This document shows, piece by piece, positions 35,101 through 38,100 of a DNA stretch of 64,000 bases. Source of the DNA: Antedon mediterranea (taxonomy: Eukaryota; Echinodermata; Crinoidea; Comatulida; Antedonidae); NCBI RefSeq assembly GCF_964355755.1, contig NC_092678.1, forward strand, positions 15,596,922 to 15,660,921. Direction: 5' to 3'. The translations under genes and the position numbers were made by a program. The notes under the pieces are model-generated. The model saw nothing but the letters and a program-made list of their open reading frames with translations. It searched no databases and was not told where the DNA came from. How positions within the stretch are numbered: the stretch's first letter is position 1; each line of letters begins with the position of its first letter.

Positions 35101-38100
35101 GAAATTCTAAACTTGAAATACAAAAAAAAAGTGTTGTGAAAAAGGGAGAAATACAGAGTAAGAGGATGTCCATGCCAGCAACCAGAGTTTGAATGAACTG
35201 CAATTCCTCCTATTCCAGTTAAAGCTATAGAAAACTTCCAAGCTGTTTTATTTTTAACTTGCTAAAATGTTAAAAGAGTTGCACTCAAGTTTTTTGTTTG
35301 GCTTTTCTGATACTAGATTTGTAACTTGCTCACCTGTTCCATGTTGACCTCAAATGGCCCAAATGACTGGCACTCTGGACATGATCCTGGTTTAACTTCT
35401 TGGTTCTGGCCTTGGTAGAATGGACCTAACACAAATCCACATTTGTGGCAGTTATATTTGATCATGTTAAGCTGAGGTAAGATGCCTGTTGAGCAGGTTA
35501 CAACTCCACTGGTACGCACCAACTGGTTTAGATGCAGCTGTCTGGAATTCAAACAAATGTTATAAAGTAACGTATGAAATTACAATCCGTTGGAAATAAT
35601 TGTAACAATTCCTGATCATTTTAGTGCAAAAGTTTAAATAATTCAACAAATATAAGTTGTGAAGGGAAGTATTATAATAGCATGTTATAATAGTACCAGC
35701 CAGGATAGAGTTAAAATTGTAGTGATCAGAATGTTATTGTTCAAAGTGGCCTTACTTTCAGGCATTTAAAATCAGATTAATTAAAGTTTTCATTCATCCA
35801 GGTACATATTCCAACTGTAGAAGTATAAGGCCTGGTTTTGTGATGCCCAATAAAGTGCATTGGTTATTATAAAGGTCAAAGTTCAATGAACTCTATTGTC
35901 GGTCAGGCTGATGATACATTTTGGATAAGATACCATTGCCACTCACCATCATTTATTTTATCGATATTCTGAACTTTGTAATATTTGTTTAGTTTTTACT
36001 GTTTTTGTCTGTTTGTTTGTATGTATATATGAAGTTCTAGAATACTCTTGTCATACCTGAGCGACCTAAGTTCTAGTATACTCTTGTCATACCGGAGTGA
36101 TCTAAGTTCTAGTATACTCTTGTCATACCTGAGTGATCTAAGTTCTAGTATACTCTTGTCATACCTGAGTGATCTAAGTTCTAGTATACTCTTGTCATAC
36201 CTGAGTGATCTAAGTTCTAGTATACTCTTGTCATACCTGAGTGATCTAAGTTCTAGTATACTCTTGTCATACCTGAGTGATCTAAGTTCTAGTATACTCT
36301 TGTCATACCTGAGTGATCTAAGTTCTAGTATACTCTTGTCATACCTGAGTGATCTAAGTTCTAGTATACTCTTGTCATACCTGAGTGATCTAAGTTCTAG
36401 TATACTCTTGTCATACCTGAGTGATCTAAGTTCTAGTATACTCTTGTCATACCTGAGTGATCTAAGTTCTAGTATACTCTTGTCATACCTGAGTGATCTA
36501 AGTTCTAGTATACTCTTGTCATACCTGAGTGATCTAAGTTCTAGTATACTCTTGTCATACCTGAGTGATCTAAGTTCTAGTATACTCTTGTCATACCTGA
36601 GTGATCTAAGTTCTAGTATACTCTTGTCATACCTGAGTGATCTAAGTTCTAGTATACTCTTGTCATACCTGAGTGATCTAAGTTCTAGTATACTCTTGTC
36701 ATACCTGAGTGATCTAAGTTCTAGTATACTATTGTCATACCTGAGTGATCTAAGTTCTAGTATACTCTTGTCATACCTGAGTGATCTAAGTTCTAGTATA
36801 CTCTTGTCATACCTGAGTGATCTAAGTTCTAGTATACTCTTGTCATACCTGAGTGATCTAAGTTCTAGTATACTCTTGTCATACCTGAGTGATCTAAGTT
36901 CTTCAACTAATGGCAGTTCTGCAATCCTTACATGGATTTCCTTTGCAATCATCTCATACTTCTGAAACATGGCAAGCACGACTTCTTTGGCAGCTTCATC
37001 AAAGATCTTCAGCATCTCTGTCGGTGCCTCGGGAAGGAAGTATGCTAGAACGTGTTCCTTAGAGGCTAGGATGTTGTAATCGACCACAAGACTCTGTTTG
37101 TTGGCTGTAAAAATGGTATGAATAAGGGGACAAGATTTTGAAAATGTGGTGAATTCAGAAAACATCTCTAGGTTTGCGTGGGATGAAACTGGGTTTAATC
37201 ATTCGATCTTTATCTCCTCCACCAGGAGACTATTATTTGTATTTGCGATATATGTCTGTTCGTAGGATAACGCCAAACTACAAAACAGATCTTTAACAAA
37301 TTTAAACCACAGATAAATATATCGTCAGCAAAGACTCGGAGGCAATCAATTTTATTATTTCACTAATTTTAGGCTGTACGTCAAAACTACATGAGGAATA
37401 TTCACCAATTCAAACCCTTTCAATATATAGTTAAAAAAGAAAAGACTGGAAAAGAAAACAGGATCCCAATTCTGGACCACTTTTAAAGAGTCTTTTACAC
37501 CTGTTCCTGCAGAGGTTCCGGCACAGTTCTGGTGCCGGCAAATCCAATCACACGTCACTGTTTCGTTTCCACGCGGCTAAGCGCATATCGATTGACGCAT
37601 AGCATAGCAACATTATTTTGCCGGACCGGAAACGTGCCGGAACAGGTGTGAAAGACTCTTTAGCCATGGGAAAATGGCAAAATTCTGAAATTCTGAATGA
37701 TTCAGTTTTAGAAGTGTACCGAGACTAAAGATTACCTTCACACATTTGTCGAATTTTTTCTTTATAGATGTTGTGACCCTTCTCATCCACACATGTCTTG
37801 AGAAAATTCTTGAATCGATTGAAAATCTCTAGCCTTGGTGCTGGCATGGAAACCCATTCTCTCACACTGTGACCTTTCATATCCTCTAGATTCTCAATAC
37901 TTTCAATCATCTATAGAAGAAATTAGCAATATTTAAAATAATGCATCAGTATAAAACATTATGGCCGACGGTATCGTTGAACAACAATGCTTATTTCTTA
38001 CATTCATTTGAATGAGGAATGAAACTAAGCCAGGACTGTTTAAATCAACTTGGTTTAGTCTTATCATTGATCAAGGGCTTCTTTTGTCCAGTGCCCTCCT

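What the first reader, a model, noticed from the sequence alone, without database searches (positions are those of the whole stretch)
36032..36906. 24-copy minisatellite that multiplies the MCM2 exon-6 splice donor in frame
Seen: a 36-bp unit made of the last 17 nt of exon 6 plus the first 19 nt of the intron, repeated 24 times. Each copy keeps a plausible donor (CAG|GTATGA; CCG|GTATGA in one), the same phase, and no stop. Splicing from the first donor (36885) gives the ancestral MCM2 junction. Splicing from copy n would add n-1 inserts of [12 protein letters not shown] between the N-terminal A domain and the zinc-ribbon region, with the rest of the protein unchanged. Inference: this is either a length-variable source of MCM2 isoforms, or a cluster of decoy U1 sites that the cell must ignore in an essential gene. 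The near-identical inner copies suggest recent expansion and likely polymorphism. I know of no described case of a splice donor amplified this way in an MCM gene.
Basis: partly seen in the sequence, partly recalled or inferred. Interest (0 to 1): 0.95.

Follow-up and report, generated by a model that had tools for sequence, protein, structure and literature searches.

The report
Splice-donor minisatellite in MCM2
A short DNA repeat has copied the 'cut here' signal at the end of one MCM2 exon 24 times, and about a dozen genes of the same animal carry such arrays, mostly in lengths where using any signal but the first would garble the protein, so the cell probably just uses the first one.

Summary
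The array is real. On the minus strand, 36902-36032, a 36-bp unit (17 nt of exon end plus 19 nt of intron start) repeats 24 times, giving 24 GT donors in one phase without a stop. The first donor gives the ancestral MCM2 junction.

The isoform idea is not supported. Four fully listed donor-motif searches of the 354-Mb genome give 34 arrays; 10 sit on coding-exon donors: MCM2, DHX8, DHX16, WDR24, UTP6, XRCC5, CUB and CoA-transferase genes, and two judged by eye. Cut listings add EIF3L and a TPR-like gene. Only 2 of 12 unit lengths are divisible by 3. Of 80 later donor-like sites in eight other genes none keeps the frame; in MCM2 22 of 22 counted do. MCM2's in-frame array looks like luck. Donor positions change at the same overall rate as the rest of the unit.

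Most likely these are near-neutral minisatellites seeded across a donor and spliced from the first copy, in line with a published first-donor preference (PMC6783452). No RNA was available, so minor isoforms remain possible. New variant of a known kind.

The parts
26130..41829 (-). MCM2 gene, span of the 16 coding pieces located
36885..37104 (-).
36032..36902 (-). Minisatellite, 36-bp unit, 24.2 copies; first copy holds the last 17 nt of the exon
36055..36884 (-). 24 GT donors, first base at 36884, then every 36 nt to 36056; CAG|GTATGA in 23, CCG|GTATGA at 36092
36032..36038 (-). Partial last copy AGAACTT, the word that also ends the exon-side unit; possible slippage site
   Evidence: origin inferred
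35542..36884 (-). Intron as removed from the first donor, 1343 nt
35334..35541 (-). Next coding exon, starts [12 protein letters not shown]
35938..35949 (-). Cryptic donor ATG|GTGAGT beyond the array (GT begins at 35946), scored above the array donors with a recalled matrix

Best explanation
A minisatellite was born across the exon-intron border of MCM2, probably by slippage between two GAACTT words 36 nt apart, one in the exon and one in the intron, and expanded recently to 24 copies. Each copy carries the donor, so the pre-mRNA shows 24 near-equal 5' splice sites. The spliceosome uses the first one transcribed, at the exon, and removes the other copies with the intron, so MCM2 protein stays ancestral. 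The array is a near-neutral passenger; that its unit is a multiple of 3 without a stop is luck. It belongs to a recurrent class in this genome. SHOWN: array, phases, ancestral first-donor junction, the class and its unit lengths. INFERRED: slippage origin, use of the first donor, neutrality.
For: Array and phases. Four fully listed motif searches give 34 arrays in G000 (19 + 5 + 4 + 6, distinct arrays counted by eye); 10 of 34, MCM2 included, have a coding exon ending at the first donor. Homology ends at or continues past the first-donor join for DHX8, WDR24, XRCC5, UTP6, DHX16 (60, weak at the join), CUB and CoA_transf_3. The aminotransferase-like and coiled-coil exons rest on sight alone; both gave no Pfam hit. 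Two more, EIF3L (81) and a TPR-like gene (82, below cut-off), come from listings that were cut. Unit lengths of the 12: 36, 37, 31, 31, 40, 32, 20, 19, 23, 17, 29, 39; 2 of 12 divisible by 3 (P of 2 or fewer at 1/3 = 0.18). With both flanks in hand for 9 genes, a later donor keeps the downstream frame at 0 of 80 later donor-like sites in eight genes and at 22 of 22 in MCM2 (it misses the CCG donor and two of the 80 lie 62 and 406 nt from the last regular copy). Substitutions in the 9-nt donor 36/1026 against 64/2248 elsewhere, Fisher p = 0.32. PMC6783452, section 7 read: with both tandem donors set to consensus the first was predominantly used (human K562 cells).
Against: No RNA was available: use of the first donor is inferred from frame and homology, and these need only that enough correct mRNA is made. 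The published preference was measured on pairs 2-77 nt apart in human cells, not on 24 copies in this animal. Two arrays depart from neutrality in opposite directions: donor decay in the CoA-transferase array (9/189 against 0/231, p = 0.001) and donor preservation in UTP6 (0/63 against 11/154, p = 0.036); copies in an array are not independent. In MCM2 4 of 5 variants among copies are synonymous (24 of 108 possible changes are; P = 0.01), which would fit coding use; two of the four lie in the exon-derived part, where MCM2 itself is constrained, and without them it is 2 of 3, P = 0.13. A cryptic donor beyond the array scores higher than the array donors (recalled matrix), so strength alone does not decide.
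Confidence: 0.72

Rival explanations
1. Length-variable MCM2 isoforms: later donors are used at a noticeable rate and add multiples of [12 protein letters not shown] between the helical A domain and the zinc-ribbon region.
For: All 22 later donors counted keep the frame without a stop; 4 of 5 variants among copies are synonymous.
Against: In eight other genes with such arrays 0 of 80 later sites keep the frame, so no general mechanism makes use of later copies; MCM2 aligns without net insertion at this place from frog to yeast-type MCM2 (query 2-142 against 238-378 in 28vy); an in-frame stop-free unit is expected in about a quarter of cases.
Confidence: 0.12
2. Mended choice: later donors are used at first, but the kept units, each beginning GT and ending AG, are spliced out again, so that the final mRNA is ancestral whatever the unit length.
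For: In nine arrays the consensus unit begins GT and ends AG; the AGGT duplication model of intron gain rests on the same geometry (PMC4974935, passages).
Against: In the MCM2 unit the stretch before the AG is poor in pyrimidines (0.56 of 18 nt against 0.61 at the true acceptor, a small difference) and single units are very short for introns; EIF3L's exon ends in TTG, so its units lack the AG. No direct evidence.
Confidence: 0.07
3. Coding repeat: the last donor is the true one and the whole array is translated (276 more residues in MCM2).
For: The frame is open through the array; AF2 draws the insert as a beta-solenoid (mean pLDDT 68).
Against: The same would break the frame in the eight comparison genes; AF2 is known to draw unrealistic beta-solenoids for perfect repeats (PMC11795689, abstract); the site is without insertion in MCM2 of other organisms.
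Confidence: 0.04
4. Assembly artefact: the true locus has one or a few copies.
For: Only one assembly; inner copies are nearly identical.
Against: Copies 5, 23 and 24 carry private changes; an 871-bp array is short for long reads (general knowledge; the read type is not known); like arrays recur at other loci.
Confidence: 0.03

Closest known systems
Variable internal tandem repeats at exon-intron boundaries of human paralogs (PMC2812944; abstract, passages and section 10 seen)
   Same: Minisatellites that straddle exon-intron borders and can alter splicing; 27 'intron modifications' reported; variable repeats there average 30-bp units.
   Different: Human genes in segmental duplications, about 4 copies on average; here single-copy conserved genes, up to 24 donors, and no sign that the protein changes.
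Intron gain by tandem duplication of a splice-site-bearing segment (PMC4974935 and PMC3629103, passages seen)
   Same: Repeated units supply potential GT and AG ends; in two fission yeast genes the gained introns consist of 24-nt tandem repeats (with AGGC there, one of them of uncertain extent).
   Different: Here the donor of an existing intron is multiplied; no new intron is shown.
Tandem 5' splice sites, 'first come-first served' donor choice (PMC6783452, section 7 and passages seen)
   Same: Equal donors a few tens of nt apart compete.
   Different: Designed pairs in human cells; here natural arrays of 3 to 24 donors in an animal.

Membership tests
MCM2 gene | MCM2-type sequence in the N-terminal and AAA+ parts | tested here: met
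   Searches (E = 4e-64; E = 2e-76), best hits named MCM2
Minisatellite spanning an exon-intron boundary | Tandem units that contain both exon end and intron start | tested here: met
Minisatellite spanning an exon-intron boundary | Copy number varies between individuals | not testable with these tools
   one assembly only; near-identity of copies suggests recent expansion
Minisatellite spanning an exon-intron boundary | Alters the splicing pattern | not testable with these tools
   no RNA; frame data of eight other genes speak against it
Alternative 5' splice site event | More than one donor used in mRNA | not testable with these tools
   no RNA; no retrocopy of the spliced junction found
Intron gain by tandem duplication | An intron absent before the duplication | tested here: inconclusive
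   the intron with the array joins conserved MCM2 exons; no relatives were at hand to see whether it predates the array

The most novel reading that the evidence does not exclude
This genome carries a class of splice-donor minisatellites in conserved genes that are tolerated because such arrays mend themselves: each unit is a GT...AG segment, so a wrong donor choice can be corrected by a second splicing step to the ancestral junction whatever the unit length; and in MCM2 the in-frame unit in addition leaks a ladder of protein isoforms.
Probability: 0.06. Interest if true: 0.85.

Novelty: new variant of a known kind. Interest (0 to 1): 0.6.

Why it matters
How the spliceosome chooses among equal 5' splice sites has been studied mostly with built constructs. 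About 12 genes here look like natural experiments with 3 to 24 donors at 17-40 nt spacing. One RNA-seq data set of this animal would show whether 'first come, first served' holds at this scale, how leaky it is, and whether a frame-neutral array (MCM2) leaks more than frame-breaking ones (DHX8, WDR24, XRCC5). It also shows that the end of a coding exon can become part of a minisatellite and share in its homogenisation.

Tried and rejected
Uniqueness to MCM2: rejected, like arrays exist in other genes. In-frame design: not supported (2 of 12 unit lengths divisible by 3). Retrocopies that would show the spliced junction: none found; besides the two exons of the locus itself there were three weak hits, E 0.03 to 0.35. 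Selection on donors: no overall difference; a first version ran into flanks and stopped early at DHX8 and was replaced. Excess of donor-carrying arrays over the backward-read control: not shown and not claimed. Matches forward + reverse against control were 1194+971 against 2322+838, 47+43 against 28+1 (34), 6+70 against 0+12 (35), 43+39 against 1369+12 (42), 5+26 against 18+3 (43), 240+55 against 11+7 (75), 491+251 against 225+243 (76); these count matches, not arrays, and single large arrays dominate. The listings were cut at about 100 rows, so the number of such arrays in the genome is unknown; of the arrays seen in them I fetched 8 places (2 of 8 at a coding donor) and left others, such as the C3:21-23 Mb family and C1:17929992, unread. 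Species: no cox1 match in the assembly and a paper search on chromosome number named no candidate; the organism stays unidentified. Structure of the insert: AF2 from a single sequence gave a beta-solenoid, set aside as unreliable for perfect repeats (PMC11795689, abstract). The donor frequency matrix and the U1 5' end used are recalled; one search printed its first rows one base off, put right. One search picked an inner array copy for DHX8 and UTP6, put right.

Literature: searches aimed at such arrays or at donor choice were made; further ones on U1 occupancy (22), repeat solenoids (38), intron gain (64) and fission yeast (74). In their listings I saw no case of a donor multiplied some 24-fold by a minisatellite. 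The library holds open-licence papers only and no search named MCM2.

Full report
Observation. The window's minus strand carries MCM2: sixteen coding pieces from 41829 down to 26130; the AAA+ exon matches MCM2 best. The exon 37104-36885 ends in GAACTTAGATCACTCAG. These 17 nt plus the first 19 nt of the intron form a 36-bp unit repeated 24 times (TRF 36032-36902, 24.2 copies, 99%). Three of 24 copies deviate from the consensus. Each copy has GTATGA at the same place, 24 GTs from 36884 to 36056. The frame stays open through the array. The first donor and the acceptor at 35541 have compatible phases and give gap-free MCM2. The unit was found only here in the 354-Mb genome. The MCM domain search shows eight clusters, counted by eye, and the MCM2 exon pair has no second strong match.

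Origin. The word GAACTT stands in the exon end and again at the end of the array, where a partial copy runs into unique intron. A slip between two such words 36 nt apart would start the array; this is inference. The copy at the exon is identical to most inner ones, while the copy farthest from the exon differs at three places, so the exon end seems to share in the homogenisation.

Is 'in frame, no stop' telling? By itself no: about a quarter of junction units would do it in a simple simulation. Four of the five variants among copies are synonymous (P = 0.01), but two of these lie in the exon-derived part, where the real exon is constrained; without them it is 2 of 3, P = 0.13.

The class. I searched the genome for other arrays with three strong donors 23-54 nt apart. 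Four motif searches were listed in full: CAGGTATG 90 matches, CAGGTAAGT 76, AAGGTAAGT 82, CAGGTGAG 31. By eye these are 19 + 5 + 4 + 6 = 34 arrays, MCM2 among them. I fetched the upstream flank of the 33 others. In 9 of these 33 the first copy coincides with the end of what reads as a coding exon.

Support for the nine. DHX8: 42 residues matched up to the donor (E = 1e-20) and gap-free across the join (E = 1.5e-38). WDR24: matched up to the donor and across the join, with a 2-residue gap a few residues beyond it. XRCC5: gap-free at the join. UTP6: the human homolog matches query 3-62 to 123-182, though PRP6, a protein of similar repeats, scores higher overall. DHX16: E = 2e-7, weak at the join. 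CUB and CoA-transferase family III by Pfam. An aminotransferase-like and a coiled-coil exon are judged by eye; both gave no Pfam hit. From two further searches with cut listings, 8 places were fetched; 2 of 8 lie at coding donors: EIF3L (E = 8e-5; next exon by eye) and a TPR-like exon (below cut-off). For the coiled-coil and TPR-like genes I identified no downstream exon.

Frame test. For 9 genes both flanking exons were in hand. In MCM2 22 of 22 later donors caught by the pattern keep the frame; in the other eight genes 0 of 80 later donor-like sites do (the pattern misses MCM2's CCG donor, and two of the 80 lie off the regular spacing). Over the 12 genes 2 unit lengths are divisible by 3, where 4 are expected by chance. 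So the class shows no sign of being shaped for protein isoforms. DHX8, DHX16, UTP6, XRCC5 and EIF3L are broadly needed genes (recalled, not tested), so enough correct mRNA must be made, and in the eight comparison genes only the first donor gives it.

Mechanism. The simplest account is polarity: the first donor transcribed is committed first. A designed-library study in human cells found that with two consensus donors the first is predominantly used, and that at equal strength the first is favoured for donors but not for acceptors (PMC6783452, section 7). The arrays extend that situation to 3-24 donors. By a recalled matrix the MCM2 array donor ranks fifth among 13 donors of this gene, and a stronger cryptic donor lies beyond the array. 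Substitutions neither avoid nor prefer the donor overall (36/1026 against 64/2248, p = 0.32), as expected if later copies are ignored; two single arrays deviate in opposite directions, and copies are not independent. An untested alternative is mending: units begin GT and end AG in the nine arrays aligned, so kept units might be spliced out again; EIF3L, whose exon ends in TTG, would not fit.

Known kinds. Minisatellites at exon-intron borders that alter gene structure are described for human duplicated genes (PMC2812944). Intron gain from tandem duplication is described in potato and fission yeast (PMC4974935, PMC3629103; passages). What differs here is the copy number, the multiplied donor of an intron between conserved exons, and the recurrence in conserved genes of one animal. 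My searches listed no described case of this donor multiplication; the library is partial and no search named MCM2.

Limits. No RNA, one assembly, no named species, no relatives. Array counts were made by eye. The motifs limit the census to strong donors, so 10 of 34 is not an estimate for all arrays, and no excess over chance is claimed; the backward-read controls give mixed counts (see Tried and rejected).

Verdict.

Noticed in passing
window 18640-19150 (-): A J-domain exon ([24 protein letters not shown]; resembles DNAJC2 from recall) with a 36-bp x 2.6 repeat in the following intron that contains GGTAAGT but does not start at the donor.
   Followed up: partly
window 52478-52705: 32-bp x 7.2 minisatellite with GGGTATGC units; no coding exon seen beside it on either strand.
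   Followed up: partly
window 35946 (-): Donor-like ATG|GTGAGT beyond the array, scored above the array donors with a recalled matrix; by position it lies after the in-frame stop of the 400-aa ORF.
   Followed up: no
G000 C1:40902567-40903660 (L022): Long array of a 31-bp unit with perfect CAGGTAAGT; no evident coding exon upstream.
   Followed up: partly
G000 C9:349956, 1224139, 2883342, 5265049 (L012-L015): Four look-alike arrays with CAGGTATGTAAGT on one chromosome, perhaps a dispersed minisatellite family.
   Followed up: no
G000 C2:634624-638109 (L046, L047): 39-bp array at the donor of a TPR-like exon; the usual unit is divisible by 3, but the unit next to the exon is 40 nt; a second block lies about 3 kb further on.
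   Followed up: partly
G000 C1:17872207 (L043) and C5:23735582 (L041): Arrays in which units with a broken donor (e.g. CAGTTGATG, CATGTAAG) alternate with intact ones, as if spread by higher-order duplication.
   Followed up: partly
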